DNA of 64,000 bases from Sphingopyxis panaciterrae. Lineage in GTDB: Bacteria > Pseudomonadota > Alphaproteobacteria > Sphingomonadales > Sphingomonadaceae. Positions 1,498-32,941 of this stretch are shown piece after piece. The DNA is taken from assembly GCF_011762125.1 (NCBI RefSeq), contig NZ_JAASQN010000001.1, positions 1,550,001 through 1,614,000 on the forward strand, written 5' to 3'. Each line of letters opens with the position of its first letter. The first letter of the stretch is position 1. Both the position numbers and the translations under genes were made by a program. The notes beneath the pieces are model-generated. The model saw only the letters and a program-made list of their open reading frames with translations, did no database searches and had not been told where the DNA came from.

Positions 1498-1509
1498 AGT
1501 TATATAACT
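1498..1509. promoter_or_regulatory. AGTTATATAACT palindromic operator, site 1
   Basis: Perfect 12-base palindrome located 45 bases before the chosen start of the TonB-dependent receptor. The identical core recurs at 8827 and 32930, and variants occur at 6656 and 26104, each upstream of a catabolic gene. The AT-rich core stands out in very GC-rich DNA. The binding protein is inferred to be the GntR-type regulator at 6802, but this is not shown by the sequence. Confidence 0.7.
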
Positions 1510-1554
1510 GGGCAAGCGAGGACGCCAGGAAGCCTCGTGGGGAGGATGTTGACC

Positions 1555-3960
1555 ATGATTTTCAAGCAGAATCGCGATTCGGCCCGATTGCTTGCGGCGG
1601 TCTCGCTCGGTGCGATTGCGCTTTCGGCCACCCCCGCCTTTGCCCAGGCGGCCCCCGAAGAGACGCAATATGACGACGACGCGATCGTCGTCATCGGGGT
1701 GACCAAGCAGGATGCAAATATCCAGGACACGCCGATCGCGATCACCGCGTTCAGCGGCGCGAAGCTGGAAGAGCAGGGGATCAACAAGGTCGAGGATATC
1801 GCGACCTTCACCCCCGGCTTCAACATTCGCGGCGCCGGCAACAATCCGACCGCCTTCTCGCTCGCGATGCGCGGACAGGTCCAGAACGACAATATTGCGA
1901 CGCTCGAACCGTCGGTCGGCACCTATCTCGACGAAATGTACGTCGCGCGCGCCTATGGCCTCAACGTCGAACTCGTCGATGTCGAAAGCGTCCAGGTGCT
2001 CAAGGGGCCGCAGGGCACGCTGTTCGGCCGCAACACCTCGGCGGGCGCGGTGCTGATCAAGACCGCCGATCCGCGCTATGACGAAATCTCGGGCCGCATC
2101 AGCGCGACCTATGGCCGCTTCGACGAACGCACCGGGCAGGCGGTGCTCAACCTCGGCCTTTCGGACAGCCTCGCGATCCGCGGCGCGCTCTATTATCAGA
2201 AGCGTGACGGCTACAAGACCGACGTCGACACCGGCAAGAAATACGAAGGCCGCGAAACGATCAACGGCCGCGTCAAGGTCGGCTGGAAGCCCACCGAGAC
2301 GTTCGAGGTCATCCTGTCGGGTGAATGGTATGACACCGACATCGACGGCCCGGCGCGTCAGAATCTCTTCTTCAACGCGCCCGCCGCCTTCGGCCCCGCC
2401 AAGCCGATCGTCGACGGACAGGCCGCGACCGACCGCGACCAGTTCGGCGGCAACGAGAATCTTGTCTCCGTCACCCCGCCATCGGCCGTTGCCGGCGCCA
2501 ACTCGCGCGGCATCTTCAATAAGACGAAGACGCAGACCTATCTTGCCAAATTCATCCTCGACACCAGCTTCGGGCAGGTACGCTGGATCAACGGCTATCG
2601 CGGTGTCCAGAGCCGCAACCTCCTTGACCTCGACGGGTCGAGCGTCGTCGGCCATTTCACCGAGGGAACGCAGAACCTGAAGCAATATTCGTCCGAAATG
2701 CAGCTCACCGGCACCGCCTTTGATGACCGGCTGAATTTCGCCACGGGCATCACCTATTTCCGCGAAACCGGCTTCGATCAGTCGCGCTCGAACCTGTTCA
2801 ACGGCAAATTCGCCGCCGGCCCGACGGTCGCGCCCGAATTCGTCGGCGCGGCCAACTGGTCGAACTTTTCGGGTACGCTCGATAACGACAGCTTCGGCAT
2901 GTACGGCCAGGTCAATTACAAGCTCGCCGACCGGCTGCGCTTCACCGGCGGTCTGCGCTATTCGATCGACGATCGCCGCGTGATCACCCAGACCGGCGAC
3001 GTCGCGAACAACAGCGATGTCTTCGTCCGCTGTACGCCATCGACGGTTGCCTTTCCGTGCCTCCGCTCGCGGCAGAAGACCTTCACCAACCTGTCGTACA
3101 CGGCGGGCGTCGATTTCGACCTTAGCGACGATATCCTGATCTATGCCAAGCACAGCAAGGGCTATCGTTCGGGCGCGATGCAGTTGCGCACGGTGACGCT
3201 CGAGGATTCGATCCCCGCCGATCCCGAACTCGTCTACGAACAGGAAGTCGGCATCAAGACGACCTTCCTCGACGGCCGCGGCAAGTTCAACGTCGCGGGC
3301 TATCATAACAAGGTGAAGGGCGCGCAGCGCAGCCCGGTCCTCGCGCCGAACGGCATCAGCCAGACGGTGATCGAGAATGCCGATACCGAAACCTGGGGGG
3401 TCGAGGTCGATACGTCGTTCGAAGTCGCCAAGGGCTTCACCATCTTCGCTTCGGGCGCGCTGACCGACCCGAAATATACGCGCTACGAAGGCAAGGCGCT
3501 CGCGGGATCGCCGCCGAACCAGGAAATCGTGACCGTCGACAAGCAGGATTATCTGCTGATCGGCATCGTCAAGAAGCAGTTCTCGGTCGGTGCCAACCTG
3601 AAGCAGGATCTTGGCAGTGTCGGGTTTGATGCGAATGTCGTCTATGCTTGGCAGGGCAAGATGCCGCAGATCGACATTCCCGCCAACATGTTCACATCGA
3701 CTGCCCCCGGCGGGCTCGGCCTTACGCCCGAACAGGCGGCACAGGTCGCCGCGGTCGCCCAGTCGGGTTCGCTCGGTATCCTCAACGCGCGCGCCGCGCT
3801 CAGCTTCGGTCCCGAGAAGAATTTCGAAATCGCGCTGTGGGGCAAGAATCTGCTCAACGACCAGGAACAGCAATACACACTGCTGCTCAGCAACATCTAC
3901 ATCGGCACCTCGTACAACGAACCGCGCAGCTATGGCGTGACCGCGAGCTATAAATTCTAG
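1555..3960 (+). CDS. TonB-dependent outer membrane receptor
   Basis: About 801 residues. ATG 1555 is preferred over GTG 1537 and ATG 1546 because GGAGG at 1541-1545 has the right spacing only for 1555. A signal peptide is clear (residues 1 to about 30, cleaved after AFA). The plug domain follows with the DTPIAIT and LKGPQGTLFGRNTSAG motifs. A 22-strand type barrel is expected and the protein ends in the aromatic-ending strand ASYKF. Family role: energy-dependent uptake of a large or poorly soluble compound across the outer membrane. It sits at the head of the catabolic region under two palindromes, so it probably imports the pathway substrate rather than iron. Two MFS genes nearby could carry the inner-membrane step. 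Confidence 0.95.
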   Translation: MIFKQNRDSARLLAAVSLGAIALSATPAFAQAAPEETQYDDDAIVVIGVTKQDANIQDTPIAITAFSGAKLEEQGINKVEDIATFTPGFNIRGAGNNPTAFSLAMRGQVQNDNIATLEPSVGTYLDEMYVARAYGLNVELVDVESVQVLKGPQGTLFGRNTSAGAVLIKTADPRYDEISGRISATYGRFDERTGQAVLNLGLSDSLAIRGALYYQKRDGYKTDVDTGKKYEGRETINGRVKVGWKPTETFEVILSGEWYDTDIDGPARQNLFFNAPAAFGPAKPIVDGQAATDRDQFGGNENLVSVTPPSAVAGANSRGIFNKTKTQTYLAKFILDTSFGQVRWINGYRGVQSRNLLDLDGSSVVGHFTEGTQNLKQYSSEMQLTGTAFDDRLNFATGITYFRETGFDQSRSNLFNGKFAAGPTVAPEFVGAANWSNFSGTLDNDSFGMYGQVNYKLADRLRFTGGLRYSIDDRRVITQTGDVANNSDVFVRCTPSTVAFPCLRSRQKTFTNLSYTAGVDFDLSDDILIYAKHSKGYRSGAMQLRTVTLEDSIPADPELVYEQEVGIKTTFLDGRGKFNVAGYHNKVKGAQRSPVLAPNGISQTVIENADTETWGVEVDTSFEVAKGFTIFASGALTDPKYTRYEGKALAGSPPNQEIVTVDKQDYLLIGIVKKQFSVGANLKQDLGSVGFDANVVYAWQGKMPQIDIPANMFTSTAPGGLGLTPEQAAQVAAVAQSGSLGILNARAALSFGPEKNFEIALWGKNLLNDQEQQYTLLLSNIYIGTSYNEPRSYGVTASYKF

Positions 3961-3968
3961 GACTGATC

Positions 3969-4093
3969 GACATTCAGTTCATGGTGAGCCGAAAATGGTG
4001 TTTTTGCGAGACCCGGAGCGCAGCGTACTTTCGGTACGTGAGCATCGGAAGCTCGCAAAAGCGCCATTTGCAGGCCGCCATGGGCTGAATGTC
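3969..4093. repeat. 125-base imperfect inverted repeat after the receptor gene
   Basis: Outer arms GACATTCAG (3969-3977) and CTGAATGTC (4085-4093) are perfect. Just inside are CATGG and CCATG. A further inner pair, TGTTTTTGCGAG and CTCGCAAAAGCG, and a short CGTACTTTCGGTACG hairpin lie in the centre. The whole can fold as one long stem with branches. It resembles dispersed intergenic elements of sphingomonads from memory, but I could not search for copies. No second copy is in this window. Confidence 0.6.
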
Positions 4094-4133
4094 GGTCGGT
4101 CCTCGGATCACAGGGCGCTCCCTCGGGAGCATT

Positions 4134-4171
4134 GGGGGAGGGACGGCCTTGGCCGGACCTCCCTCTTTTTT
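4134..4171 (+). terminator. Rho-independent terminator after the TonB receptor
   Basis: A GC-rich stem (GGGAGG paired with CCTCCC, enclosing CGGCC-TT-GGCCG) is followed directly by TCTTTTTT. It ends the receptor transcript. It stands only about 20 bases before the start codon of the MFS gene, so it could also act as an attenuator for read-through into that gene. Confidence 0.8.
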
Positions 4172-4190
4172 GTCCGGGAAAGGAAAAGCC

Positions 4191-5441
4191 ATGTCTTCAG
4201 AAAGTTCGAACCGCCGCGGACTGACCCTCGGCCTGCTCGTGATCGTCGCGATCCTGAGCTATGTCGATCGGCAGGTTTTCACGCTGTTCCAGGACGATAT
4301 CAAGATCGAACTCGGCCTCGACGACGGCCAGCTCGGCCTGCTCACCGGCATCGCCTTCGCCGCTTTTTATGCGATCGCCGCCTTTCCGATCGCGCGCTAC
4401 GCCGATCGCGGCGACCGGCGCGTCGTGATCGCGGTCTGCGTGTCGATCTGGAGCGCCGCAACCGCGGTGTCGGGCTTTGCGCACAGCTTCTGGCAGATGC
4501 TGCTCGCGCGGATCGGGCTTGCCGCGGCGGAAGCCGGCGCCGGCCCCGCCGGCCTGTCGCTGCTCACCGATATTTTCCCGAAGGGCCGCCGCACCACGGT
4601 CATCTCGATCATGCTTGCGGCCAATGCCGTCGGCCTTTCGGGCGGGCTCGCGCTCGCGGGCTGGCTGTCGCAATGGTACGACTGGCGCGCCGTCTTCCTG
4701 ATCGTCGGCCTGCCCGGCCTCGGCGTCGGGCTCGCCGTCTACCTGCTCGCCGCCGAACCGCGCCGCCGCGGGATGGCCGAACCGGTGGCACCGTCGCAGA
4801 CCAGCTTGGGCGAGGTTCTGCGCACCATGGCGTCGAACCCGTCGCTGCGCTGGGTCGGGCTGCTGCTCTGCATGGTTCCGCTCACCGGCTTCGCCTTCAT
4901 CCTGTGGGGGGCTTCCTTCTTCCAGCGCGTGCACGGGATGGACAAGACCGAAACCGGCTTCTGGCTCGGCGGCGCGATGGCCGCGGGGCTGGTCATCGGC
5001 AATCTCGTCGCCGGCTGGGTCAGCGACAAATATGGCCAGGCGAACCCGCGCTTCAACGGCTGGTTCGCGGGCATCGGCCTGCTGCTGTCCTTTCCCTTCG
5101 GCGTCGGCTTCGCGCTCGCAGGGAACGCTTATGTCGCGCTCGCCTGCTTCGTCGTCGTCAAATTCATGATGACGCTCCACCTCGGCCCGATCATCGCGCT
5201 CTGCTTCGCGCAGGTCCCGGTCCAGATGCGTGCGACGATGTCGGCCACGATCAACATGTTCATAGGCCTGGCCGGCGTCGGATTGGGCGGAACGGTCGCC
5301 GGCTATCTCAGCAAGGCGTTCACGCCGGACTATGGCGAACTGTCGCTCCAGCCGTCGCTGGCAATCCTGTCGGGATGCCTGCTCGTCGGCGGCATCGCGG
5401 CGATCATGGCCGGAAAGACGGCGCGGCCGATTGCAGAGTAA
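4191..5441 (+). CDS. MFS transporter, Spinster-like
   Basis: 416 residues from ATG 4191, chosen because GGGAAAGGAAAAG stands just upstream and the SYVDRQVF first-helix motif follows within 30 residues. Twelve hydrophobic segments are apparent. The DRGDRR loop between helices 2 and 3 and the GEAG-like AAEAGAGPAG motif in helix 4 match the Spinster-type branch of the major facilitator superfamily, common in sphingomonad catabolic clusters. Likely inner-membrane uptake or export of a pathway compound. Located behind the TonB receptor terminator and convergent with an amidohydrolase. Substrate unknown. Confidence 0.9.
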   Translation: MSSESSNRRGLTLGLLVIVAILSYVDRQVFTLFQDDIKIELGLDDGQLGLLTGIAFAAFYAIAAFPIARYADRGDRRVVIAVCVSIWSAATAVSGFAHSFWQMLLARIGLAAAEAGAGPAGLSLLTDIFPKGRRTTVISIMLAANAVGLSGGLALAGWLSQWYDWRAVFLIVGLPGLGVGLAVYLLAAEPRRRGMAEPVAPSQTSLGEVLRTMASNPSLRWVGLLLCMVPLTGFAFILWGASFFQRVHGMDKTETGFWLGGAMAAGLVIGNLVAGWVSDKYGQANPRFNGWFAGIGLLLSFPFGVGFALAGNAYVALACFVVVKFMMTLHLGPIIALCFAQVPVQMRATMSATINMFIGLAGVGLGGTVAGYLSKAFTPDYGELSLQPSLAILSGCLLVGGIAAIMAGKTARPIAE

Positions 5442-5447
5442 CCGGAA

Positions 5448-5490
5448 CCTTCCCTCCCGAACGCGGGAGGGGAAGGGGGGAGGGTTTTTA
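5448..5490 (+). terminator. Intrinsic terminator after the MFS gene
   Basis: Arms CCTTCCCTCCCG (5448-5459) and CGGGAGGGGAAGG (5464-5476) with a four-base loop. A second G-rich run ends in GGTTTTTA at 5483-5490. It separates the plus-strand MFS gene from the convergent minus-strand amidohydrolase. The stem is also of the CTCCCGC repeat type seen between other convergent genes in such genomes. Confidence 0.7.
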
Positions 5491-6603
5491 TGCCGCCACC
5501 TGCGTGCTCGTCACCACCACCGGGGCGATCCCGAACAGCCGCGCGGCGTTCAGTCCCAGGATATTCCGCCGCACATCGTCGCTGACCTGCATCCCCTCGA
5601 ACAGTTCGTCGACAATCCGGCGGCTGGCAGGGAAGGTGCCTTCGGCATGCGGATAGTCCGATCCCCACATCACATTCTTCGCGCCCGGCAGTCCCGCCGC
5701 AGCCGCGGCGATGCAGCCGCGATCGTGCTGAAAACTGGCCCAGACCTGGTCGTCGATAATCCGGCTCGGCGCGCGGCCAAGCTTGGGAAAGACGAAGTTC
5801 GCGTGCGCGACCGACACCTCGTCCATCCGCTCGGCGAGCGCGACGAGCCAGCTCGCGCCGCTTTCGATGAAAGCGACTTTCGCGCCGGGATTGCGGTCGA
5901 GCACACCGCCCGACACCAGATACATCACGCTCGTCTGTGCGTCGTTCATCTGGTTGGTGTAATTGATGATCCCAGCGCCGGGACCGCGTTCGACGATCAC
6001 GCTTTCCAGCCCCGTGCCCGTATGCATCACGAACACGATGCCCAGCGATGCGGCCTTTGCGAACACCGGATCCCACGCTTCGCTGTTATATTTGGGCAAG
6101 TCCTGCGGTGTGGTCGCGGGCAGCATCGCGGCGGTAAAGCCCTTTGATGCCAGATAATCGAGTTCGGCGAGGGTGTTCGAAAAATCGAGCACGGGCAGCA
6201 TGCCGCACCGCACGAAACGGTTCGGATGGCCGCCGAGGAAACCGTCGTTCCAGTCGTTGTACAGCCGCGCCGATGCGGCTTCAGCATCGGGATTGTCGAG
6301 GCAATAGAGCCACAGGCCGAGCGACGGGAAGCAGATTTCGGCGTCGATGCCTTCGAGTTCCATATCCTCGAGCCGTCCCGGTATCTCGCGGATGCCCTTG
6401 CGCTGGGCATCGCCCAGTTCCTTTTCGCGATGCTGTCCGACGCGCAGGCGATAGATGATCTTGTCCCTGGTTCCGGTGATCAGATATTCACCCTCCTTGC
6501 GCGCGTGGATCGCATGATCCTTCAGCGATGCGGGCAGGCCGTCGAGGAAGATGTCTGCCGGTTCCATGATGTGGCTGTCGGCGCTGAATATGAAGGGTTT
6601 CAT
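5488..6603 (-). CDS. Amidohydrolase 2 family protein (COG2159)
   Basis: 371 residues. The N-terminus has the metal-binding DxH (ADSHIMEP, D8 and H10). Later motifs are the VMHTGTG histidine and the WGSDYPHAEGTFP motif near residue 315 with the conserved aspartate. This is the amidohydrolase/decarboxylase superfamily that includes ACMSD and gamma-resorcylate decarboxylase; many members in actinobacterial and sphingomonad degradation clusters have no assigned reaction. Likely a cytosolic Zn-dependent hydrolase or decarboxylase acting on a ring or acyl intermediate. It is divergent from the GntR regulator gene, with a palindrome between them, suggesting direct regulation. Confidence 0.9.
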   Translation of the reverse strand: MKPFIFSADSHIMEPADIFLDGLPASLKDHAIHARKEGEYLITGTRDKIIYRLRVGQHREKELGDAQRKGIREIPGRLEDMELEGIDAEICFPSLGLWLYCLDNPDAEAASARLYNDWNDGFLGGHPNRFVRCGMLPVLDFSNTLAELDYLASKGFTAAMLPATTPQDLPKYNSEAWDPVFAKAASLGIVFVMHTGTGLESVIVERGPGAGIINYTNQMNDAQTSVMYLVSGGVLDRNPGAKVAFIESGASWLVALAERMDEVSVAHANFVFPKLGRAPSRIIDDQVWASFQHDRGCIAAAAAGLPGAKNVMWGSDYPHAEGTFPASRRIVDELFEGMQVSDDVRRNILGLNAARLFGIAPVVVTSTQVAA

Positions 6604-6655
6604 GCAGTGTCTCCTGTCGACTCACTGTCGGTCTTTACGGCATTAAAAGATACCT

Positions 6656-6667
6656 AGTTATATAAGT
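6656..6667. promoter_or_regulatory. AGTTATATAAGT operator variant, site 2
   Basis: Differs from the perfect AGTTATATAACT palindrome by one base. The flank CCTAGT...AAGTCA is shared with the degenerate site at 26104. It lies 53 bases upstream of the minus-strand amidohydrolase and about 135 bases before the GntR gene, a position suited to autoregulation and to control of the amidohydrolase. Confidence 0.6.
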
Positions 6668-6750
6668 CAAGAGCGAGTGGAGCTGGACATAAGGTCTTAG
6701 GAGGCTTAAATAGATATCTGATTGAATATCTTCTCCCGATGCTGTTGCCC

Positions 6751-6830
6751 CAAGCTTGTCGAAGGGGCCGCTCATGTGCGGGGATGCCGAAAGGAAGAAC
6801 AGTGCTTCGACAAGCTCAGCACGAACGGAA
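6751..6830. repeat. Sphingomonad REP-like inverted repeat
   Basis: Arms AGCTTGTCGAAG (6753-6764) and CTTCGACAAGCT (6805-6816) are perfect inverted copies, followed by CAGCACGAACGG. The CTTCGACAAGCTCAGCACGA sequence is one I recognise as a widespread intergenic repeat in sphingomonads. Here it overlaps the probable start of the GntR regulator gene rather than lying cleanly between genes. Confidence 0.75.
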
Positions 6831-7566
6831 GCGCGGAACCGGCGCTGAAACCCTTGCCAGCCGAACCGCTCGCCAACTCTCACAGCTCAGCCTCGCCTCT
6901 GATCCCGGCACCCATTTGGGCGCCGAGGACGACCTGCTTACCCGCTTCGGCGTCAGCCGGCCAACCCTCCGCCAGGCGGCGAAGCTGGTTGAGCGCGACC
7001 GCCTCATCAGCATCCGCCGCGGCGCGCAGGGCGGCTATTATGCCGAGCGTCCCGACGCGCGCGACGCGATCCAGTCGCTCGCGCGCTTCCTGCGCATGAA
7101 GGGCGCGAACCTTGGTCACGTGATTCAGGTTACCCGCCCGGTGTCCGAGGAAGCCGCCGTTGCTGCGGCGCGCCACCGCAGCGCCGCCGATGTCGCGGCT
7201 CTGCAAGCCTTCGTCTCGACGATCGATGCGCGCGACACGCCGCGCGACCTGATCGCCGCCGAAGTCGAAATGGCCCGGCTGGTGTCGCAGATGAGCGGCA
7301 ACCCGGTGGTCGAACTGATCCTCGAGATCGGCTACAGCTTTGGTCTCGACGAAAAGGGCGGCGACCTCTACGCCGATGCCGACCGGCGCGCGCGAACACG
7401 CGCGATGCAGCATAGCCTGTGCGCCGCGATCATCGACGGCGATGCGGATATCGCGCGCTTGATGATGCGGCGGCGGTCGGACCAGTTCGACGAATGGTTG
7501 AACCTGGGCGGTGCATCGGTCCCCGGCATGCCCCCAGTCGGATCGACGCAGAAGGAGCAGGAATGA
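6802..7566 (+). CDS. GntR-type transcriptional regulator, FadR/FCD branch
   Basis: About 254 residues from GTG 6802, chosen because AAGGAAG stands six bases upstream. ATG 6784 and 6739 are possible but lack good ribosome sites. The winged helix-turn-helix covers residues 41 to 80 (AEDDLLTRFGVSRPTLRQAAKL, then RRGAQGGYYA). The remainder is an all-helical FCD-like ligand domain. The usual metal-binding D...H of FCD is replaced (EVEMARLV), so its effector may differ from metal-dependent members. The first dozen codons come from a REP-like repeat. It overlaps the next gene by four bases. Best candidate reader of the AGTTATATAACT sites. Confidence 0.85.
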   Translation: MLRQAQHERKRGTGAETLASRTARQLSQLSLASDPGTHLGAEDDLLTRFGVSRPTLRQAAKLVERDRLISIRRGAQGGYYAERPDARDAIQSLARFLRMKGANLGHVIQVTRPVSEEAAVAAARHRSAADVAALQAFVSTIDARDTPRDLIAAEVEMARLVSQMSGNPVVELILEIGYSFGLDEKGGDLYADADRRARTRAMQHSLCAAIIDGDADIARLMMRRRSDQFDEWLNLGGASVPGMPPVGSTQKEQE

Positions 7567-8789
7567 GCATCGTCGAATATCGCGGGTTTGCAGGGGTTCG
7601 GCTCGAAGCCGAGGTGCTCGGTTCCGACAACGACCCTGCCGTCCTTCTGCTTCACGGGGCGGGGCAGACGCGGACGGTGTGGTCCAGCGTCGCACAGGCG
7701 CTCGAACAGGCGGGGCGCCGCGTGATCAGCCTCGATCTGCGCGGCCATGGTGGCAGCGAATGGCCCGAAGACGGGCGCTATGATTTCGAATCGCTGGTCG
7801 AGGATCTGCGCGCGGTGCTTGCGCAAATGGGGACGCGGCCCGTCGTCGTCGCCTCGACGCTGGGTGGCTGGATCGCCAGCGCCGCGCTCGAACGCGACGC
7901 GGCGGTTCTCGCGTCGGGCCTGGTTCTCGTTGACTCGCCTGTTCACGTCGACCCGGCGATGGCGCAGCGCGTCGGCGACCGGCTGCGCGAAGCGGCGACG
8001 CTCGCGCCGGGGCAGGCGCAATGGGATGTGCGCTTGTTCGATACGCTCGATACTTCGGCAATGGCCGACCGGCTCGACGGGGTTGCCGAGAAGATCGCAC
8101 TGCCGACGCTCTATGTACGCGGCGCGATCAGTGAACTCGTTTCGAAGGAGGATGCCGCTGCGTTCGTCGCCCGACTCCCCGACGGCGAACTGGTCGAGGT
8201 CGAGAATAGCGCGCTTGTCGTCATCGAGGATCGCGCCGATGCGCTCGGCGGCTATCTCATCGACTTTCTGGAACGCCGTGCCCCGCGCGGCTCGCCCGAA
8301 TATCGGGCGGGCAGCGATGCGCGTACCTTTCGCGATGCGCTCGGCTGCTTCGCGACGGGGGTGACCGTCGTCACCGCCATATGTCCCGACGGCAGCCCGG
8401 TCGGGCTGACCGCGAACAGCTTCACCTCGGTCTCGCTCGACCCCCCGATGCTGCTCGTCTGCATCGCCAATAGCGCCGGCAGTGCGCCCTATCTGCGCGA
8501 TGCCGAACGCTTCGCGGTCAATGTCCTCCAGATCGGCCAGCAGCCGACCTCGAACCGCTTTGCAGGGAAGGGCGAGGACCGCTTCGGCGTCACCCCGTGG
8601 GAGGTTGGCGAATATGGTACACCGGTGCTCACCGGATCGCTTTCCAGCTTTGAATGCGCACGCGATGCGCTGCACGACGGCGGCGACCATTTCATCCTCG
8701 TCGGCCGCGTGCTGAAGGCTATTTTCGAGCCACGCCGCGACCCCTTGCTCTACTTCCGCGGCAAATATCGCAAACTCCATTTCGCTTGA
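7563..8789 (+). CDS. Alpha/beta-hydrolase (degenerate) fused to flavin reductase
   Basis: 408 residues; ATG overlaps the GntR stop as ATGA, with AAGGAGCAGG upstream. Residues 1 to about 240 have an alpha/beta-hydrolase fold: oxyanion LLHGAG (29-34), LDLRGHGGS, and the nucleophile elbow at 97-102. All three catalytic positions appear changed: nucleophile Ser to Thr99 (ASTLGG), acid Asp to Glu191 (ISEL), His to Leu218 (NSALVVIEDR). Residues 254 to 408 are a flavin reductase-like FMN-binding domain (GCFATGVTVVTA, GLTANSFTSVSLDPP, GDHFILVGRV), of the HpaC/NtaB type that supplies reduced flavin to two-component monooxygenases. The hydrolase half may be a ligand-binding pseudoenzyme. No matching large oxygenase component lies beside it. 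Confidence 0.9.
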   Translation: MSIVEYRGFAGVRLEAEVLGSDNDPAVLLLHGAGQTRTVWSSVAQALEQAGRRVISLDLRGHGGSEWPEDGRYDFESLVEDLRAVLAQMGTRPVVVASTLGGWIASAALERDAAVLASGLVLVDSPVHVDPAMAQRVGDRLREAATLAPGQAQWDVRLFDTLDTSAMADRLDGVAEKIALPTLYVRGAISELVSKEDAAAFVARLPDGELVEVENSALVVIEDRADALGGYLIDFLERRAPRGSPEYRAGSDARTFRDALGCFATGVTVVTAICPDGSPVGLTANSFTSVSLDPPMLLVCIANSAGSAPYLRDAERFAVNVLQIGQQPTSNRFAGKGEDRFGVTPWEVGEYGTPVLTGSLSSFECARDALHDGGDHFILVGRVLKAIFEPRRDPLLYFRGKYRKLHFA

Positions 8790-8824
8790 CGACTGGACAA
8801 GCAGCCGCCAGCATCATATCGAAC

Positions 8825-8840
8825 CTAGTTATATAACTAG
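8825..8840. promoter_or_regulatory. AGTTATATAACT operator, site 3, extended to 16 bases
   Basis: CTAGTTATATAACTAG is a perfect 16-base palindrome with the common 12-base core at 8827-8838. It ends 17 bases before the start codon of the thiolase-fold gene that opens the 8858-14926 operon, overlapping the region where a promoter or leader would be. The most symmetric of the five sites. Confidence 0.75.
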
Positions 8841-8857
8841 AATCGGAGGAGAGGCGG

Positions 8858-10075
8858 ATGGCCTGGGTCAATCAGGACAAGTGCGCGATCGTCGGGGTCG
8901 GGGCGACCGACTATTATGTCCGTGGCAAAAGCTGGCCGCGCACGATCAACGACATGGCGGCCGAGGCGATCATGAACGCCTGCGCCGATGCGGGGATCAG
9001 CCACAAACAGATCGACGGCTTCTCCTATTATTCGACCGCGGGCGCGGGCTATCTCGACAAGTTCGATACCGCCAGCCTGATGGAAACATTGGGTATGCCG
9101 CATATCAGCTGGTCGGCGACATTGACCAGCGGCGGGGGCGGTTGTCCCGGCGCGATCGGCCTTGCGACCGCTGGCCTGATGAACGAGGATTGCACCTACA
9201 CCGTCACCTTGATGGCGCTGCAGCAATTGCCGCAGCATCGGCTCGGCGTCGTGTTTGGCGCCGCCGCGCCCAACCCGGAAAACAGTTTTCTCCAGCCGTC
9301 AGGTTTGGTCGGGCCCGGCCATCTGATGAGCGTCCTCGCGCGCCGGCACATGCACCTCTACGGCACGACGCAGGATGCGTTCGGCGAGGTCGTGATGGCG
9401 ACCCGCGCCAACACCCACAACCGGCCGAAAGCCGTGCGCAAGGAGCCGCTGACCAAGGACCAATATGATGCCTCGGTAATGCTGGCCGATCCGCTGCGGC
9501 GCCTCGACTTCTGTCTCGAAACCGACGGCGCGGTCGCCGTCATCACCACGACGATGGACCGCGCCAAGGACTGCCGCCACAAGCCCGCGGTCGTCCACGC
9601 CGCCGCGCATGGCGGTCAGCGCGAATGGGGCCGCGCCTTTGCGTGGATGGGCATGCCCGACCCGCATTTCGCCAGCTCCGGCCACAAGTTCACCGCCGAC
9701 CGCGTCTGGGCGCAATCGGGCCTCAGCGCCAGGGACATGGACGTCGCGCTGATCTATGATCATTTCAGCCCGATGGTGCTGATGCAGCTCGAAGACTATG
9801 GCTTCTGCGAAAAGGGCGAGGGCAATGATTATGTCCTCTCGGGGAAGCTGCGCTACGATCCCGCGACGGGCAAGGGCGTCAATGGCGGCACGCCGGTGAA
9901 CACCCACGGCGGCAACCTCAACGAAGCCTATATCATCGGCATGACCCATATCGTTGAGGGCGTCGAACAGGTGCGCGGTACCGCGATCAATCAGGTCAAG
10001 GATGCCGAATTCGCGCTCGTCTCGGGCGGTCCGGCGTCGCTCCCCGTCTCCAGCCTCATCCTGCGCAAGGACTGA
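8858..10075 (+). CDS. Thiolase-fold protein, Ltp2-like putative aldolase (copy 1)
   Basis: 405 residues of thiolase fold. The position of the nucleophilic cysteine reads LTSGGGG, with no Cys, and the GHP histidine motif is replaced by NTHGGNLNEAY. A YDHFS motif with Tyr300 is present. These features match the lipid-transfer/Ltp2 branch, whose members with a DUF35 partner act as retro-aldolases releasing a ketone and a short acyl-CoA in steroid side-chain degradation, using tyrosine chemistry. The DUF35 partner follows five bases later. First gene of an operon with a CoA-transferase, a kinase-like protein and an SDR, directly under the best palindrome. Aldolase role is inferred from the family and pairing. 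Confidence 0.85.
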   Translation: MAWVNQDKCAIVGVGATDYYVRGKSWPRTINDMAAEAIMNACADAGISHKQIDGFSYYSTAGAGYLDKFDTASLMETLGMPHISWSATLTSGGGGCPGAIGLATAGLMNEDCTYTVTLMALQQLPQHRLGVVFGAAAPNPENSFLQPSGLVGPGHLMSVLARRHMHLYGTTQDAFGEVVMATRANTHNRPKAVRKEPLTKDQYDASVMLADPLRRLDFCLETDGAVAVITTTMDRAKDCRHKPAVVHAAAHGGQREWGRAFAWMGMPDPHFASSGHKFTADRVWAQSGLSARDMDVALIYDHFSPMVLMQLEDYGFCEKGEGNDYVLSGKLRYDPATGKGVNGGTPVNTHGGNLNEAYIIGMTHIVEGVEQVRGTAINQVKDAEFALVSGGPASLPVSSLILRKD

Positions 10076-10080
10076 TCGAC

Positions 10081-10509
10081 ATGACCTACGGCCCCGCCCG
10101 CGCGATCCCCGGTGACCAGATCCGCATCACCACCAACCCCGATACCGAGCCTTTCTGGCAGGCGGCGAAGGAGGGCAAGCTCACTGCGTGCCAGTGCGGC
10201 GGGTGCGGCCATTTCCGCATGCCGCCGACCGCGATCTGCCCCGAGTGCGGCAGCCGCGCCAAGGAGTGGCCGACGCTCCCCGGCACCGCCACCGTGTTCA
10301 GTTACGCGATCTGCAACAAGAACCCCAGGAATGGCGAGGATTATGTCTATGTCCCCGTCGTCGTCGACCTCGACGGCGCTCCGGGTACACGCCTCAACGC
10401 CAATGTCTCGGGCTGCGACGCCGAGGACGTCCATATCGGGATGCAGGTGACCGTCGACTGGACGCCGATCCAGGACGGCTGGGTCCTCCCCAACTTCCGG
10501 AAAGCCTGA
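10081..10509 (+). CDS. Zn-ribbon OB-fold protein, DUF35 (copy 1)
   Basis: 142 residues. N-terminal helix (TEPFWQAAKEGKL), then a rubredoxin-like Zn ribbon with C39-x2-C42 and C53-x2-C56, then an OB fold with VPVVVDLDGAPGTRL. This is the DUF35 partner of thiolase-fold aldolases, forming a heterocomplex needed for activity and acyl-CoA binding (ChsH2-type). It lies five bases after its thiolase partner and four before the CoA-transferase. All four Zn ligands are intact. The order here is thiolase then DUF35, the reverse of copies 2 and 3. Confidence 0.9.
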   Translation: MTYGPARAIPGDQIRITTNPDTEPFWQAAKEGKLTACQCGGCGHFRMPPTAICPECGSRAKEWPTLPGTATVFSYAICNKNPRNGEDYVYVPVVVDLDGAPGTRLNANVSGCDAEDVHIGMQVTVDWTPIQDGWVLPNFRKA

Positions 10510-10513
10510 CGCG

Positions 10514-14079: not shown

Positions 14080-14101
14080 ACATCAGGAAAGGTTGAGGGA
14101 C

Positions 14102-14926: not shown

Positions 14927-14931
14927 TGCTT

Positions 14932-15022: not shown

Positions 15023-15685
15023 CTACCCGCGCGCGCCCAGCATCATCGCAATGCTGTGTGCCGCCGCCGCCTTCAGGTCGGCATAGCCGACGCCTTCGCT
15101 ATGGCTGCTCATCGGGCCGATCGCCGACAAGCGCTCGAGGATCATCAGCACCGTGCCGGCGCACGACCGCGGCGACAGTTGCGCCGGGGTGCGTCCCGCG
15201 GCTTGCGCTCGCATCACCTGTTCGCTGATCGCATCCATCATCGGCCGCGCCTGTGTCATCCGGGCTTCGTAGAAGCGCGGGTCGCCTTCCTCGGCCGCCA
15301 GGTTGCGGACGACGAAGATCGTCCGGTTGCGATTCCAGATGTCGGTGTAGCATTCGACGAAGGCCAGCGCGGCCGTGTCCGCTCCCGGCGCCAGCCAGTC
15401 GCGCGCGATGATCGCCTCCAGTTCGGGCGAGGACTGGCTCGCATTTTCCAGCGCGGCGAGCACGGCTTCGGGCACGCCCTTGAAATAGACATAGAAGGTC
15501 GCGGGCGACGTCTGCGCCGCGCGCGCGACATCGACGACCGACACGTCGCGCAGCCCGTGCGTTTCGAGCAGCGCGACGGTCGCGTCGATCAGCTGCTGCC
15601 GCGTCCGCTGCCCCTTGGCGCCGAGCCGGCGTCCGCTGCCTTCGGCGGCGATATCCGCCGTCTTGATTGCCTGTTGCTGCGTCAA
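15023..15685 (-). CDS. TetR family transcriptional regulator
   Basis: 220 residues from a TTG at 15685, preferred because AGGGGCAGGA stands eight bases upstream. A longer frame reaches an ATG at 15745 but would carry a basic tail atypical of the family. The helix-turn-helix is clear: RTRQQLIDATVALLETHG, VSVVDVARAAQTSPATFYVYFKG. The C-terminal ligand domain is variable. The gene is divergent from the SDR-MFS-DUF35-thiolase operon, with a TTGACGTATCGTCAA palindrome between them, so it probably represses that operon and itself. The ligand is probably an acyl-CoA or free acid of the pathway (inferred). Confidence 0.9.
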   Translation of the reverse strand: MTQQQAIKTADIAAEGSGRRLGAKGQRTRQQLIDATVALLETHGLRDVSVVDVARAAQTSPATFYVYFKGVPEAVLAALENASQSSPELEAIIARDWLAPGADTAALAFVECYTDIWNRNRTIFVVRNLAAEEGDPRFYEARMTQARPMMDAISEQVMRAQAAGRTPAQLSPRSCAGTVLMILERLSAIGPMSSHSEGVGYADLKAAAAHSIAMMLGARG

Positions 15686-19542: not shown

Positions 19543-19548
19543 GCCATC

Positions 19549-19567: not shown

Positions 19568-19570
19568 GAA

Positions 19571-20680: not shown

Positions 20681-20694
20681 CGCGGCTTTCTCCC

Positions 20695-21927: not shown

Positions 21928-21938
21928 GCGCTTTTCCC

Positions 21939-23414: not shown

Positions 23415-23424
23415 ATTCTTGTCC

Positions 23425-24696: not shown

Positions 24697-24708
24697 ATCC
24701 GCCTCCGC

Positions 24709-26022: not shown

Positions 26023-26071
26023 GGCGACTCTCCTCTCATGTTGCTTATCGTTGCACACATCATCGCAAAAA

Positions 26072-26086
26072 TTGACGATGTGTCAA
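26072..26086. promoter_or_regulatory. TTGACGATGTGTCAA, TetR-type operator, site B
   Basis: Imperfect palindrome TTGAC-N5-GTCAA sharing 11 of 15 bases, including both outer arms, with the site at 15750 beside tetR. It lies between the divergent amidohydrolase (start 26022) and DUF35 gene (start 26141). Suggests that the TetR protein also controls this promoter pair. Confidence 0.55.
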
Positions 26087-26103
26087 CTCTTGGTTTATGA
26101 CCT

Positions 26104-26115
26104 AGTGTAATAAGT
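26104..26115. promoter_or_regulatory. Degenerate AGTTATATAACT-type site 4
   Basis: CCTAGTGTAATAAGTCA matches the site at 6656 (CCTAGTTATATAAGTCA) at all but three positions and the perfect palindrome at eight of twelve. It lies 25 bases before the DUF35 start codon, the same spacing as sites 3 and 5. Together with site B it makes this intergenic stretch a double-operator region. Confidence 0.45.
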
Positions 26116-26140
26116 CAGGACAGCCGACCAGGAGAGGAAG

Positions 26141-26545
26141 ATGATCGCACGAACGCTGCCGGTAATCGACCGGGACAATGAGGCCTATTGGACTTGGGGC
26201 CGCGACGGAAAGCTTGCGATCCACCGCTGCGGCGACTGCGATTATTTTGTCCATCCGCCCGTGCCGTTCTGCCCCCGATGCGAAGGCCGCAACGTCGCGC
26301 CGCGGGCGGTATCGGGGCGGGGCAGAGTGGTGACCTTCACGGTCAATCACAAGGCGTGGGTTCCCGGCCTGCGGGTTCCCTACATCCTCGCGCTCGTCGC
26401 GATTGAGGAGCAGGATGATGTCCGCTTGGCCTGCAATATCGTTGATTGTCATGCCGGGGAAGTGACCTTCGGCATGGCGGTGGAAGTCCTGTTCGAGCAA
26501 GCAGAAGACCTGTGGGCCCCGCTGTTCCGACCGGTGCAATCATGA
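26141..26545 (+). CDS. Zn-ribbon OB-fold protein, DUF35 (copy 3)
   Basis: 134 residues from ATG 26141, with GGAGAGGAAG just upstream. Zn ribbon C30-x2-C33 and C44-x2-C47, then the OB fold with VVTFTVNHKAWVPG and YILALVAIEEQ. Partner of the following thiolase-fold protein, with which it overlaps by four bases. Probably forms the same kind of aldolase complex as copies 1 and 2. Confidence 0.9.
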   Translation: MIARTLPVIDRDNEAYWTWGRDGKLAIHRCGDCDYFVHPPVPFCPRCEGRNVAPRAVSGRGRVVTFTVNHKAWVPGLRVPYILALVAIEEQDDVRLACNIVDCHAGEVTFGMAVEVLFEQAEDLWAPLFRPVQS

Positions 26546-27726
26546 CCGCCTTCGCCGAGAAAAACACAGCGATCTCCGGCGTCGGCATGTCTGAAGTCTC
26601 GCGCGGGGCCACCAAGTCCGCACTGGCGCTCACCGCCGATGCCGCGCTCGAAGCCATCGCCGATGCGGGCCTTACCCGCGCTGACATCGATGGGATTGCG
26701 ACCTGGCCCGGCGAGCGCGCAGATGGTTCGGGCTTCGCGCCCGTCGGCTGCGCGGCGTTGCAGGACGCACTGCGGCTGGAGGTCGGCTGGTATGCCGGCG
26801 GCGGCGAAGCGCCGGGGCAATATGGCGCGGTCTTCAATGCGATCGGTGCGATTGCGGCGGGGCTGTGCCGCAATGTCCTGATCTTTCGAACCATGTATGA
26901 AGCAACGGCGCGCAAGACCGCTTATGCCAATTCGCTGCTGCGCGAGGGTCAGCGGCAGGCCGGCCCCTTTGTATGGTATGCGCCTTATTACACCTATGCC
27001 GCGGCGCTGCAGCAGGCGCTATTCTTCAATCTCTATGTTCACAAGAGCGGCATCACGCCCGAACAGGTCGGACAGATTGCCGTGAACCAGCGCCGCAACG
27101 CCGCGCTCAATCCGAATGCGATCTATCGGACGCCGATCACGCTCGACGACTATCTGGCTTCGCCGATCATCGCGACGCCGCTGCGTCTTTATGACTGCGA
27201 TGTGCCGATCGACGGCGCTGCGGCAATCATTGTTTCGCGAATGGACGTCGCGCGCGATTTGCCGAATCCGCCCATCCGGGTCGAGGCGATCGGATCGTCG
27301 ATGCGCTATCGCAACAGCTGGACCCAGCTGGCCGAACTCGACACGCAAGCGCAGCCCAAGGTTGCCGAGATGATGTGGAGCCGCACCAACCTGAAGCCCG
27401 CTGATGTCGATATCGCGCAGCTTTACGACGGTTTCAGCTTTCACACGATCAACTGGCTCGAAAATTTCGGCTTTTGCGAACGCTATGGCGCGAAGGATTT
27501 CATCGCGGGTGGAACGCGGATCGCGCTGGACGGCGAATTGCCGGTCAATACCGGCGGTGGCGCGCTGTCGGGTGGAAGGCTCCACGCCTATGGTGCGGTG
27601 CACGAGGCCTGCACGCAATTATGGGGCCGGGGCGGCGAGCGGCAGGTCAAGGGTGATCCGCAAATTTGCGCGACATCCACCTCGGGCGGTCCGCTGGCCG
27701 GCGCGATGCTGCTGGTTCGCGACTAA
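26542..27726 (+). CDS. Thiolase-fold protein, Ltp2-like putative aldolase (copy 3)
   Basis: 394 residues. No cysteine at the thiolase nucleophile position (AGGGEAPGQYG). Tyr295 in LYDGFS, and NTGGGALSGGRLHAYGAVHEACTQLWG. Close to copy 2 along the whole length. Transcribed with its DUF35 partner as a two-gene unit. The stop touches the stop of the convergent amidohydrolase at 27723. Retro-aldol cleavage of a different side-chain intermediate from those of copies 1 and 2 is the likely reason for three pairs (inferred). Confidence 0.87.
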   Translation: MTAFAEKNTAISGVGMSEVSRGATKSALALTADAALEAIADAGLTRADIDGIATWPGERADGSGFAPVGCAALQDALRLEVGWYAGGGEAPGQYGAVFNAIGAIAAGLCRNVLIFRTMYEATARKTAYANSLLREGQRQAGPFVWYAPYYTYAAALQQALFFNLYVHKSGITPEQVGQIAVNQRRNAALNPNAIYRTPITLDDYLASPIIATPLRLYDCDVPIDGAAAIIVSRMDVARDLPNPPIRVEAIGSSMRYRNSWTQLAELDTQAQPKVAEMMWSRTNLKPADVDIAQLYDGFSFHTINWLENFGFCERYGAKDFIAGGTRIALDGELPVNTGGGALSGGRLHAYGAVHEACTQLWGRGGERQVKGDPQICATSTSGGPLAGAMLLVRD

Positions 27727-31011: not shown

Positions 31012-31020
31012 CGCGCCTTC

Positions 31021-32526
31021 CTATCCGGCGCAGACCTCTTCCGCCAGTTCGGCCTTGAGCACGCGGCGGAGCAGCTTTCCGGTTTCATTATAGGGGAGTT
31101 CGCTACGCACGAACCATTGTTCGGGGGTTTTCGTCGAGCGCAGCCGGGCCTTGATGGTTGCCGCCATGCCGACGGTGTCGGGCGCGCCCGATCGGGACAC
31201 GATTACCGCGACGACCTTTTCGCCCCATTGGACGCACGGAATCCCGAGCACCGCGCAATCGGCGATGTCGTCGAAGCCGCGCAGCACATCCTCGATCTCG
31301 CCCGGCGAGATATTCTCGCCGCCGCGCACGATGACGTCGTCGAGCCGCCCCTCGACGAACAGATAGCCGCCGTCGTCGAGCCAGCCCGCGTCATTGGTTG
31401 CGAACCAGCCGTCGTCGGCGATGGCCTTTCTATGCAGATATTCGCCCGACACCTGCTCGCCGCGAACATGGATTTCACCATGTTCGCCGGGGCCGCACGG
31501 CGAGCCATCCTCGCGGCGGATTTCGAGTTCGATGCTGGGGAGCGGCTGGCCGACCGACGCGATGCGGCGGCGGATCGCCGGGTCGTCGGAGGCGAAGGCG
31601 GCGCGATGATCATCGGCGCCGAGCAACGCGATCGTCGAACTGGTCTCGGTGAGACCATAGGCGTTGACGAAATCGACCTGCGGCAACATCGCCAGCGCGC
31701 GCGCGATCACCGGTTCGGGCATCTTGCCGCCACCGTAGGAGAGCGCGCGAAGGGCGGGCAGCGTCTCGCCGGTCTCGACCATCACGTCGAGGATGCGATC
31801 GAGCATCGTCGGGACGACCATCGCATGGGTAATGGCTTCGGCCGCGGCGACCCGGACCCAATCCTCGGCGGTGAAAGCGGGCAGATAGACGATCCGCCGC
31901 CCGCCATAGGCCGAGGTCAGGATCGCCGAGATTCCGGCGATATGATAAGATGGCACGCTGACCAGCGCGGCCTGGTCCTCGTCCGCCCCAAGGAATTCGA
32001 CCGTCGCCATGACATAGGAGGTCAGGTTCGCATGACGGAGCACGGCCGCCTTGGGATCGCCGGTGGTGCCGCTGGTGAACAGCAGCACGGCGATGTCGTT
32101 TTCGGCTTCGGGCAGGTCGACCTTCGCGCGCGCGCCGCCCGTCATGAATTCAGCCTCGAAGCGGCTGCGCGCGACCAGTTCCACACCGTCCACCGGCGCG
32201 ATACGGCGCAGCATGTCGTCGTCGGCGATCAACACCGCCGGAGCGCTGCGGGCGACCAGCTTATTGAGATCGGCATCGGCGAGGCGATAGTTGAGCGGCA
32301 CGAAGGGCGTTCCCGCCATGCCGCTCGCAAAGAGCAGGACGGGAAGGGCGTCGCCGTTCATGCCGAGGAAGGCGGTGTTGGCCTTTCCCTCGGAGAGCAA
32401 CCAGGCCGCAACCCGGCTGGCACGCGCCCGATAGGCGTGGAAATCCATGCCGTCGCCGCTGCCGCCGAGCGCGAGGCGTTCGGGGCAGGCATCGGCGGCG
32501 ATATCGAGCAGAAGCGGCGTACGCAT
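31021..32526 (-). CDS. Acyl-CoA synthetase (AMP-forming)
   Basis: 501 residues. Adenylate-binding loop FTSGTTGDPKAA, substrate-site NAYGLTETSS, hinge GRLDDVIVRGGENISPGEIE, and catalytic lysine in NETGKLLRR. Complete ANL-family enzyme. Activates a carboxylic acid to its CoA thioester with ATP; probably starts or re-enters the pathway. Six bases after the small unknown gene and nine before the crotonase-like gene, so part of one leftward unit. Confidence 0.93.
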   Translation of the reverse strand: MRTPLLLDIAADACPERLALGGSGDGMDFHAYRARASRVAAWLLSEGKANTAFLGMNGDALPVLLFASGMAGTPFVPLNYRLADADLNKLVARSAPAVLIADDDMLRRIAPVDGVELVARSRFEAEFMTGGARAKVDLPEAENDIAVLLFTSGTTGDPKAAVLRHANLTSYVMATVEFLGADEDQAALVSVPSYHIAGISAILTSAYGGRRIVYLPAFTAEDWVRVAAAEAITHAMVVPTMLDRILDVMVETGETLPALRALSYGGGKMPEPVIARALAMLPQVDFVNAYGLTETSSTIALLGADDHRAAFASDDPAIRRRIASVGQPLPSIELEIRREDGSPCGPGEHGEIHVRGEQVSGEYLHRKAIADDGWFATNDAGWLDDGGYLFVEGRLDDVIVRGGENISPGEIEDVLRGFDDIADCAVLGIPCVQWGEKVVAVIVSRSGAPDTVGMAATIKARLRSTKTPEQWFVRSELPYNETGKLLRRVLKAELAEEVCAG

Positions 32527-32532
32527 GCAAAA

Positions 32533-32841
32533 TCAGTCCGACGCGGGAAGCGGCTTGGCGCCCTTGACGGTCATCGCGGCACCGTTGAAGGCGAGCGAGC
32601 CTTGCCCGGCCTTGGCGCCGAGCACTTCGAGCCCGCTATCCTCGTCGACATAGCGTTTGCCGATGGCGACGCCCTCGGCAAAGTCGGCGCTGACGGCGCC
32701 CGACGGCGTGGCAGCATCGTCGATCGGTAGCACCGTTGCGCCGCCGCACTGGAGTTCGCCCGCTGTCCGGGGCGGGCGCACGACGACCAGTTGCGCGTCG
32801 CATACCGCGCTCTTCCAGCGCGAACCCGGTTTGAGGTCCAT
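32533..32841 (-). CDS. Small conserved-looking protein, unknown function
   Basis: 102 residues from ATG 32841 with GGAAAGG at suitable spacing; an ATG nine bases earlier lacks room for a ribosome site. I do not recognise a named family. Visible are CDAQLVVVRPP and LQCGG, two cysteines about 22 residues apart, and a C-terminal LGAKAGQGSLAFNG and KGAKPLPASD. No signal peptide or membrane segment. It opens the leftward unit with an acyl-CoA synthetase, which suggests an accessory role there, but no function is assigned. Confidence 0.7.
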   Translation of the reverse strand: MDLKPGSRWKSAVCDAQLVVVRPPRTAGELQCGGATVLPIDDAATPSGAVSADFAEGVAIGKRYVDEDSGLEVLGAKAGQGSLAFNGAAMTVKGAKPLPASD

Positions 32842-32901
32842 TTCGTTCATCCTTTCCCGTCGGCGTCCGGCCTTGCCATCGTGTCGGCTTTGACCTGCCA
32901 A

Positions 32902-32917
32902 TATGTCAATCGACATA
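32902..32917. promoter_or_regulatory. TATGTC-N4-GACATA inverted repeat
   Basis: Six-base arms around AATC, in the divergent promoter between the small gene (start 32841) and the acyl-CoA synthetase (start 32964), next to the palindrome at 32930. Overlaps a TTGAC...GTCAA pair with ten-base spacing, unlike sites A and B. Weak evidence for a second regulator. Confidence 0.35.
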
Positions 32918-32929
32918 GAAAGTAAACGT

Positions 32930-32941
32930 AGTTATATAACT
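32930..32941. promoter_or_regulatory. AGTTATATAACT palindromic operator, site 5
   Basis: Perfect copy of the 12-base palindrome, 22 bases before the start of the plus-strand acyl-CoA synthetase and 88 bases upstream of the minus-strand small gene. Same spacing to the plus-strand start as site 3, so probably overlapping the transcription start or the region just after it. Confidence 0.7.

What the first reader, a model, noticed from the sequence alone, without database searches (positions are those of the whole stretch)
1498..32941. A 12-base palindrome, AGTTATATAACT, marks five promoters of one catabolic region
Perfect copies occur at 1498, 8827 (extended to 16 bases) and 32930, a one-mismatch copy at 6656 and a degenerate one at 26104. 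Each stands 20 to 55 bases before a catabolic gene: TonB receptor, amidohydrolase, thiolase-fold operon, DUF35-thiolase pair, acyl-CoA synthetase. I noticed none elsewhere in the window. This defines a regulon spanning over 30 kb. The GntR-type protein at 6802, next to site 2, is the likely reader, because FadR-branch regulators bind short GT...AC palindromes.
Basis: partly seen in the sequence, partly recalled or inferred. Interest (0 to 1): 0.85.

Follow-up and report, generated by a model that had tools for sequence, protein, structure and literature searches.

The report
Shared operator of a 75-kb catabolic island

Summary
AGTTATATAACT occurs at 1498, 8827 and 32930, with one mismatch at 6656 (0.07 expected at <=2 mismatches). 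All six perfect copies in the 4.84-Mb genome lie within 69 kb. The degenerate 26104 copy is weak but kept in three relatives. The regulon is larger than reported: at least 11 operators over 75 kb, five in the window, mostly in short divergent gaps. The consensus is longer: AGTTATATAACT-AGGTNA, a palindrome plus a third half-site. The named reader is probably wrong. Another FCD-GntR protein (g051, C1:1533899-1534669, 15-16 kb left of the window) is favoured: it accompanies the sites in genomes without a 6802 ortholog (Sphingopyxis G100; 9 of 9 mini-loci), and related sites precede g051-like genes in distant lineages (15 of 57). The 6802 protein more likely reads AGRTAYCT, found mainly at its own divergon. 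Operators appear to overlap core promoters, so repression by occlusion is likely. Ligand and substrate are unknown; nothing was tested by experiment. It is ordinary in kind, with an operator that departs from the usual FadR-type spacing.

The parts
1492..1509 (-). Operator AGTTATATAACTAAGTCT before the TonB receptor
   Evidence: score 31.0; <=2-mismatch site before g070 orthologs in 7 of 7 windows
1478..1506 (+). Candidate sigma70 promoter TTGTCT-17-TATATA; the -10 is the palindrome centre
   Evidence: Read by eye; spacing kept in G038, G105, G441, G418, not in G424 and G471; not listed by the consensus scan of 1300-9000
1555..3960 (+). g070 TonB-dependent receptor
   Evidence: Pfam PF00593, PF07715
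5488..6603 (-). g072 amidohydrolase
   Evidence: Pfam PF04909
6650..6667 (-). Operator ACTTATATAACTAGGTAT, 52 bp before g072
   Evidence: score 33.2; <=2 mismatches before g072 in 10 of 14 windows
6648..6655 (+). AGATACCT element abutting the operator
   Evidence: AGRTAYCT in 14 of 16 g072 windows and 7 of 13 g073 windows, 28 of 1151 windows in all; g072 and g073 windows share the gap
6712..6719 (+). AGATATCT element, candidate own operator of g073
   Evidence: PF07729 31.4 bits over cut-off 24.3; PF00392 26.0 bits under cut-off 27
8821..8838 (-). Operator AGTTATATAACTAGGTTC before the thiolase-fold operon
   Evidence: 32.5; <=2 mismatches before g075 in 10 of 14 windows
8858..10075 (+). g075 thiolase-fold (lipid-transfer-protein-like) protein
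   Evidence: PF22691; nearest solved chain 6ok1 lipid-transfer protein
10081..10509 (+). g076 DUF35/ChsH2-type partner
   Evidence: PF01796, PF12172
26098..26115 (-). Weak operator ACTTATTACACTAGGTCA between g089 and g090
   Evidence: Score 13.9; 15.8 G038, 14.9 G105, 21.2 G441 in the same gap
26141..27726 (+). g090-g091 DUF35 + thiolase-fold pair
32924..32941 (-). Operator AGTTATATAACTACGTTT between g096 and g097
   Evidence: 32.4; site before g096 in 3 of 8 windows (G038, G105, G000)
32964..34505 (+). g097 acyl-CoA synthetase
   Evidence: PF00501 (protein taken from 33015)
15023..15685 (-). g080 TetR protein, considered and not favoured as reader
   Evidence: PF00440; no <=2-mismatch site before it in 8 of 8 windows, though a 42% homolog in G100 has one 70 bp upstream

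Best explanation
AGTTATATAACTAGGTNA is the operator of an FCD-type GntR repressor (g051, outside the window at C1:1533899-1534669, i.e. window -16101 to -15331). Without its ligand, g051 sits on one operator in each short, mostly divergent gap of the island. There it covers the -10, the spacer or the start point and shuts the promoters on either side: TonB import, acyl-CoA ligases, acyl-CoA dehydrogenase pairs, DUF35-thiolase pairs, amidohydrolase. A pathway intermediate bound by the FCD domain, perhaps an acyl-CoA or acid, would release it and switch the island on. The g073 GntR is a second, local regulator of the g072/g073 divergon through AGRTAYCT. Shown here by sequence comparison: the operators, their conservation, their co-occurrence with g051 and related sites before g051-like genes. 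Inferred: binding, repression, ligand, and the role of g073.
For: (1) Clustering and placement. (2) Same genus: of 60 genomes scanned, 16 of 17 with a g051 ortholog (>=70% identity) hold >=2 perfect copies; of 43 without it, 42 hold none and one holds one. (3) Census over fetched islands: 160 of 1117 upstream windows hold a <=2-mismatch site against 4 for the reversed motif; heads of operons are hit (g029 13/13, g070 7/7, g072 10/14, g075 10/14), internal genes such as g035, g041, g043-g045, g049, g050, g076, g077 in none of their 12-29 windows each. (4) Genomes without g073: Sphingopyxis G100, and 9 of 9 mini-loci with a 47-50% g051-like protein, in which a <=2-mismatch site precedes the thiolase and a second conserved footprint (TAACTAAGTGATACAA in 9 of 9) precedes the dehydrogenase-g051 operon. 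(5) Upstream of 57 g051-like rows, 12 hold a profile hit >=13 and 9 a TAACTA[AGC]GT core, 15 in union, nearly all 75-155 bp before the gene. (6) Third half-site 7-12 nt from the centre: arm score >=4 of 5 in 87 of 106 sites, 0 of 106 six bases further out; such extra boxes and single mid-gap sites are described for FadR-subfamily regulators (PMC4494728, sections 15, 17 read). (7) g051 has GntR + FCD domains. (8) Overlap with promoter-like hexamers.
Against: No binding or expression data. In Sphingopyxis g051 has no good site at its own promoter (best profile score 10.5 or less, -2.6 in this genome). g051 and g073 share the helix sequence SRPTLR. GT-N6-AC is not the usual FadR-type spacing (PMC4494728). 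Raw genome-wide counts beat the reversed control in only 5 of 25 family genomes with a g051-like gene. G466 (53%) has no profile hit above 10 in 20 kb read; G481 (51%) has no <=1-mismatch copy and two moderate hits; G445, G159 and G381 are also poor. The second mini-locus footprint is 2-4 mismatches from the 12-mer (4 in five of nine). Beside two mini-loci listed, other regulators lie near (OmpR-like in G247, TetR-like in G305, by eye), not shared. The profile was trained on sites that include G100, the mini-loci and G441, so their scores are partly circular. The consensus scan of 1300-9000 found 1 promoter against 1.8 expected and none that I propose.
Confidence: 0.75

Rival explanations
1. 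One reading: the GntR at 6802 (g073) reads AGTTATATAACT across the island.
For: A site lies in the g072/g073 gap of many orthologs (<=2 mismatches in 9 of 11 g073 windows); g073 orthologs occur in 22 of 80 Sphingopyxis genomes, nearly the same ones as the motif; same helix SRPTLR as g051.
Against: No ortholog in G100 or in the mini-locus genomes that keep sites: their matches at E <= 1e-8 are the g051-like gene itself and, in G100 and G305, one other weak GntR. Not found in G109 either, but that assembly is fragmented. AGRTAYCT is concentrated at its own divergon. In G424 and G471 the site stays with g072/g070 while g073 has moved.
Confidence: 0.1
2. Both GntR proteins read the same operator and compete or form mixed complexes, one repressing and one fine-tuning.
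For: Identical SRPTLR helix; AGATACCT abuts the palindrome at 6648-6667, so a g073 element and the shared operator touch there.
Against: AGRTAYCT is in 28 of 1151 windows, 21 of them at g072/g073, so g073 has no visible reason to act at most other operons.
Confidence: 0.07
3. Another regulator (TetR g056 or g080, the MarR-like g045, or an unknown protein elsewhere) reads the palindrome.
For: g056 and g080 orthologs also travel with the island; g045 matches MarR_2; a 42% g080 homolog in G100 has a 2-mismatch site 70 bp upstream.
Against: None of the three was hit in the mini-locus stretches (tblastn at 1e-10), and no <=2-mismatch site precedes g045, g056 or g080 in 20, 23 and 8 windows. A protein elsewhere in the genome was not excluded.
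Confidence: 0.05
4. The palindrome is a shared core-promoter element (back-to-back -10 boxes), not an operator.
For: TATATA at its centre, place in divergent gaps.
Against: Clustered in one region in this genome and tied to g051, with a third half-site whose side does not follow gene direction.
Confidence: 0.03

Closest known systems
FadR subfamily (FCD domain) of GntR regulators, as described by Suvorova et al. 2015 (PMC4494728; abstract, sections 10, 15, 17 and passages read)
   Same: GntR + FCD domains; single site near the middle of a divergent gap; extra weaker half-site 7-12 nt from the palindrome centre
   Different: GT and AC are 6 nt apart, not 2-3; no TKGT/ACMA box
NanR of E. coli (PMC8012715, abstract in the listing and passages read; PDB 6on4)
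   Same: Nearest solved relative of g051 (E 4.8e-15) and best NCBIfam match; more than two half-sites in the operator
   Different: NCBIfam 105.5 bits, far below the cut-off of 260; NanR sites are GGTATA direct repeats, here an inverted pair plus one half-site; NanR's cooperative binding rests on a 32-residue N-terminal extension, whereas the GntR domain of g051 starts at residue 14
Atu1419 of Agrobacterium fabrum (PMC7797058, passages read)
   Same: FCD-GntR repressor of a catabolic pathway; 10-mer palindromes over the -10 or between -35 and -10
   Different: ATGTATACAT; tetramer; three genes repressed
BioR (seen only as named in PMC4494728)
   Same: FadR-subfamily exception with an A/T-rich palindrome, TTATMKATAA
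   Different: Two bases between the TTAT and ATAA blocks, none here; biotin role recalled, not looked up
PheR of Sphingobium (PMC13273656, passages read)
   Same: Sphingomonad repressor tying TonB uptake to catabolism
   Different: IclR family, GCAACG core

Membership tests
GntR regulator, FadR (FCD) subfamily: g051 | N-terminal GntR winged helix | tested here: met
   PF00392 63.6 bits, cut-off 27
GntR regulator, FadR (FCD) subfamily: g051 | C-terminal FCD domain | tested here: met
   PF07729 67.1 bits, cut-off 24.3
GntR regulator, FadR (FCD) subfamily: g051 | Typical operator with GT and AC 2-3 nt apart (usual, not universal) | tested here: not met
   Consensus of 78 de-duplicated sites is AGTTATATAACT, GT-N6-AC; BioR and NanR are published exceptions (PMC4494728)
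GntR regulator, FadR (FCD) subfamily: g051 | Binds the operator and lets go on ligand | not testable with these tools
   Needs protein
NanR subfamily | NCBIfam NF003011 cut-off | tested here: not met
   105.5 bits against 260
Single-operator divergon regulon | Same site before orthologous operons in several genomes | tested here: met
Single-operator divergon regulon | Transcription starts overlapped by the site | tested here: inconclusive
   Conserved hexamers by eye; consensus scan of 1300-9000 negative

The most novel reading that the evidence does not exclude
A clade of FCD-GntR proteins, spread from Sphingopyxis and Novosphingobium to more distant alphaproteobacteria, reads a non-canonical operator of three half-sites at 6-bp steps (AGTTAT-ATAACT-AGGTNA), perhaps with more than one dimer as in NanR. 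One protein thereby silences a 75-kb island of eleven operators and probably a distant TonB/MFS pair, with a second GntR nested inside the island on its own element.
Probability: 0.4. Interest if true: 0.6.

Novelty: new variant of a known kind. Interest (0 to 1): 0.5.

Why it matters
It names a testable master switch for a large uncharacterised degradation island of sphingomonads. Its genes (three DUF35-thiolase pairs, adjacent acyl-CoA dehydrogenase pairs, two CYP101-like P450s, ligases, CoA-transferases) suggest side-chain removal from a cyclic or isoprenoid compound; that is inference. A g051 deletion should switch the island on without knowing the substrate, and operator-reporter fusions could then be used to find the inducer. 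It also adds an operator geometry outside the usual FadR-type consensus.

Tried and rejected
Rejected: g073 as island-wide reader (see rivals). Rejected: self-regulation of g051 through AGTTARACAACT at -25 in L144, L152 and L153: no AGGTNA arm, low profile score, not kept in the other Sphingopyxis. Rejected as evidence: raw genome-wide counts, where the reversed control is often higher (103 against 22; higher in 4 of 10 genomes; motif higher in only 5 of 25). Rejected as a clean control: a reversed profile, because the motif is nearly palindromic and it scored up to 18.8; replaced by simulated sequence. Single perfect copies in five genomes of other families of the order and in G028 were scored only: 15.9 to 24.5, but 30.7 for L024, not followed. 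Substrate: Pfam, NCBIfam and solved-structure look-ups gave families only; no substrate is claimed. Literature: the 12-mer is in one paper of the searched library, on mouse genetics; the listings (20 of 23, 3 of 3, 3 of 3, 20 of 24, 4 of 4 and 5 of 830 papers shown) held no title or abstract start describing this regulon. That covers only an open-licence library. A Caenibius tardaugens bile-salt paper (PMC12882949, passages read) names TetR and AraC regulators and other palindromes. No structure was predicted: a single-protein model would not decide the DNA question.

Limits of the counts: 13 of the 80 held Sphingopyxis genomes were never scanned for the motif. The census covers the stretches I fetched; related genomes count apart, both sides of a divergent gap count, and genes under 45% identity were left out. 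L160, G122 and G183 are one genome, G009 and G120 another, and several of L144-L158 are the same genomes as G handles. The profile leaves out G000 but not its close relatives. Of 11 genomes of the two mini-locus genera with a g051-like gene, 2 (G267, G319) had no thiolase hit in the stretch read and are not in the 9 of 9. The confidence was lowered from 0.80 to 0.75, and one rival from 0.06 to 0.05, on rechecking: regulators beside two mini-loci had been left out, and the shares summed to more than one.
Full report
CHECKING THE OBSERVATION. In the window AGTTATATAACT with up to two mismatches occurs four times against 0.07 expected. In the own genome (window = C1:1550001-1614000) six perfect copies exist, all between C1:1513774 and C1:1582930. 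The genus is Sphingopyxis, judged from record titles of close g051 relatives, among them one whose coordinates match a same-genus handle. The fifth, degenerate place at 26104 has four mismatches but keeps the third half-site, and the same gap scores 15.8, 14.9 and 21.2 in G038, G105 and G441; most other genomes tested there score low.

ANATOMY. A simple gene caller shows a catabolic island of roughly 85 to 90 kb. In this genome the sites lie in short gaps, mostly between divergent genes, usually 19-54 bp before a start codon, with a few flanking genes at 75-81 bp and the called start of g073 at 248 bp (g097 counted from the ATG at 32964). A profile trained on sites of other genomes and run over 154 kb of this genome ranks ten places at 23.9 or more, all in intergenic gaps of the island: C1:1508564, 1513768, 1517928, 1524578, 1531490, 1544900 and window 1492, 6650, 8821, 32924. 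Window 26098 follows at 13.9 and the next place has 10.4. In twenty simulated sequences of the same size nothing reached 16. One place far outside the island, C1:312744, between a TonB-receptor-like and an MFS-like gene (by eye), scores 28.5.

THE MOTIF IS LONGER. Among 106 physical sites the palindrome has an AGGTNA arm on one side in most cases: 87 of 106 reach 4 of 5 arm letters on the better side, none of 106 six bases further out with the same better-of-two rule. The arm lies 7-12 nt from the palindrome centre, where Suvorova et al. describe extra half-sites for GntR regulators (PMC4494728, section 17). It is not tied to gene direction: upstream at g070 and g075, downstream at g029 and g072.

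CONSERVATION. Of 60 same-genus genomes, 17 hold a perfect copy, 16 of these two or more. Set against g051 orthologs at >=70% identity, 16 of 17 genomes with g051 hold two or more perfect copies (G017 holds only mismatched ones), and 42 of 43 without it hold none. Of seven further Sphingopyxis genomes with g051 scanned at one mismatch, six hold perfect copies and G100 two one-mismatch copies. In fetched stretches, 160 of 1117 upstream windows hold a <=2-mismatch site, against 4 for the reversed motif. Sites follow the same genes through rearrangements. Novosphingobium sp. KCTC 2891 has two copies of the island and sites in both. In a draw of 397 genomes of the family, 28 had a g051-like match at E <= 1e-45; in 25 of them raw motif counts beat the reversed control in only 5, so the case rests on where the sites lie.

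WHO READS IT. Four regulators that I tested travel with the island in Sphingopyxis (of 80 genomes: g051 in 24 at >=70% identity, g073 in 22, g056 in 23, g080 in 23 with the G100 match only 42%), so presence alone does not decide. Three things speak for g051. First, genomes without g073. G100 keeps four sites scoring 23-33; its best g073 hits are another GntR at 30% and g051 itself. Nine small-genome relatives (G165, G247, G305, G347, G359, G383, G394, G414, G444) carry a mini-locus with a 47-50% g051-like protein. In 9 of 9 a <=2-mismatch site stands between a hydratase-like gene and a thiolase, and a second conserved footprint containing TAACTAAGTGATACAA stands before the dehydrogenase-g051 operon, though there the 12-mer differs at 2 to 4 places. 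Their g073 matches are at the g051-like gene, plus one other weak GntR in G305. In the two mini-loci whose genes I listed, an OmpR-like (G247) and a TetR-like gene (G305) lie nearby; they are not shared (by eye). Second, upstream of 57 g051-like rows, 15 hold a profile hit >=13 or a TAACTA[AGC]GT core, including 42% paralogs; none of these is in Sphingopyxis except a paralog in G105. Third, the g072/g073 divergon has its own element AGRTAYCT (14 of 16 g072 windows, 7 of 13 g073 windows, 28 of 1151 in all), which explains g073 without the shared motif. Against: Sphingopyxis g051 itself lacks a good site, both proteins share SRPTLR, and G466, G481, G445, G159 and G381 have g051-like genes with few or weak sites nearby.

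HOW IT PROBABLY WORKS. Promoter-like hexamers put the operator at the -10 (g070: TTGTCT-17-TATATA), just after the -10 (g075: TGGACA-17-TATCNA) or in the spacer (g072, g034, g026). These were read by eye; the consensus scan of 1300-9000 did not list those it covered. Overlap with the core promoter points to repression by occlusion, as for the FCD-GntR repressor Atu1419, whose palindromes lie over the -10 or between -35 and -10 (PMC7797058, passages read). The ligand is unknown.

WHAT IS KNOWN. g051 has GntR and FCD domains; its nearest solved relative is NanR and its best NCBIfam match is NanR at less than half the cut-off. It is an FCD-GntR protein but not NanR. Its operator departs from the usual GT-N2-3-AC. 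The listings showed no description of this regulon.

VERDICT. Observation confirmed and widened. In my judgement the regulon is real (about 0.97), g051 is the likely reader (about 0.85), repression is the likely mode (about 0.75), and the substrate is unknown.

Noticed in passing
6712-6719 and 6648-6655: A second conserved element, AGRTAYCT, found mainly at the g072/g073 divergon; candidate own operator of g073.
   Followed up: yes
about 6748-6828: A repeat-like insertion (CTTGTCGAAGGG ... CTTCGACAAGCTCAGCACGAACGG) between the operator and g073 that changes the g073 N-terminus; a similar one in loci L068 and L069, not in most orthologs.
   Followed up: partly
own genome C1:312744-312755 (locus L011, 1501): A site scoring 28.5 between a TonB-receptor-like and an MFS-like gene, over 1 Mb from the island: possible further target.
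   Followed up: partly
7563-8789: g074 fuses an alpha/beta hydrolase with a flavin reductase domain; mini-loci seem to carry both as separate genes near g051-like (by eye).
   Followed up: no
G124 C6 and C29 (Novosphingobium sp. KCTC 2891): Two diverged copies of the island, each with its own g051, g073 and operators.
   Followed up: no
locus L153: A record titled Gammaproteobacteria carries a Sphingopyxis-like g051 locus (84% identity); possibly misassigned.
   Followed up: no
G056 C1:1002236-1002893: The g080 TetR ortholog is split in two adjacent pieces; in G101 the g073 match holds one internal TGA.
   Followed up: no
G128 contig C434: In an alphaproteobacterial MAG with a 44% g051-like protein, 5 of 6 genome-wide <=1-mismatch sites (two overlapping) lie on one 26-kb contig with island homologs; the genome-wide reversed control has 11.
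   Followed up: partly
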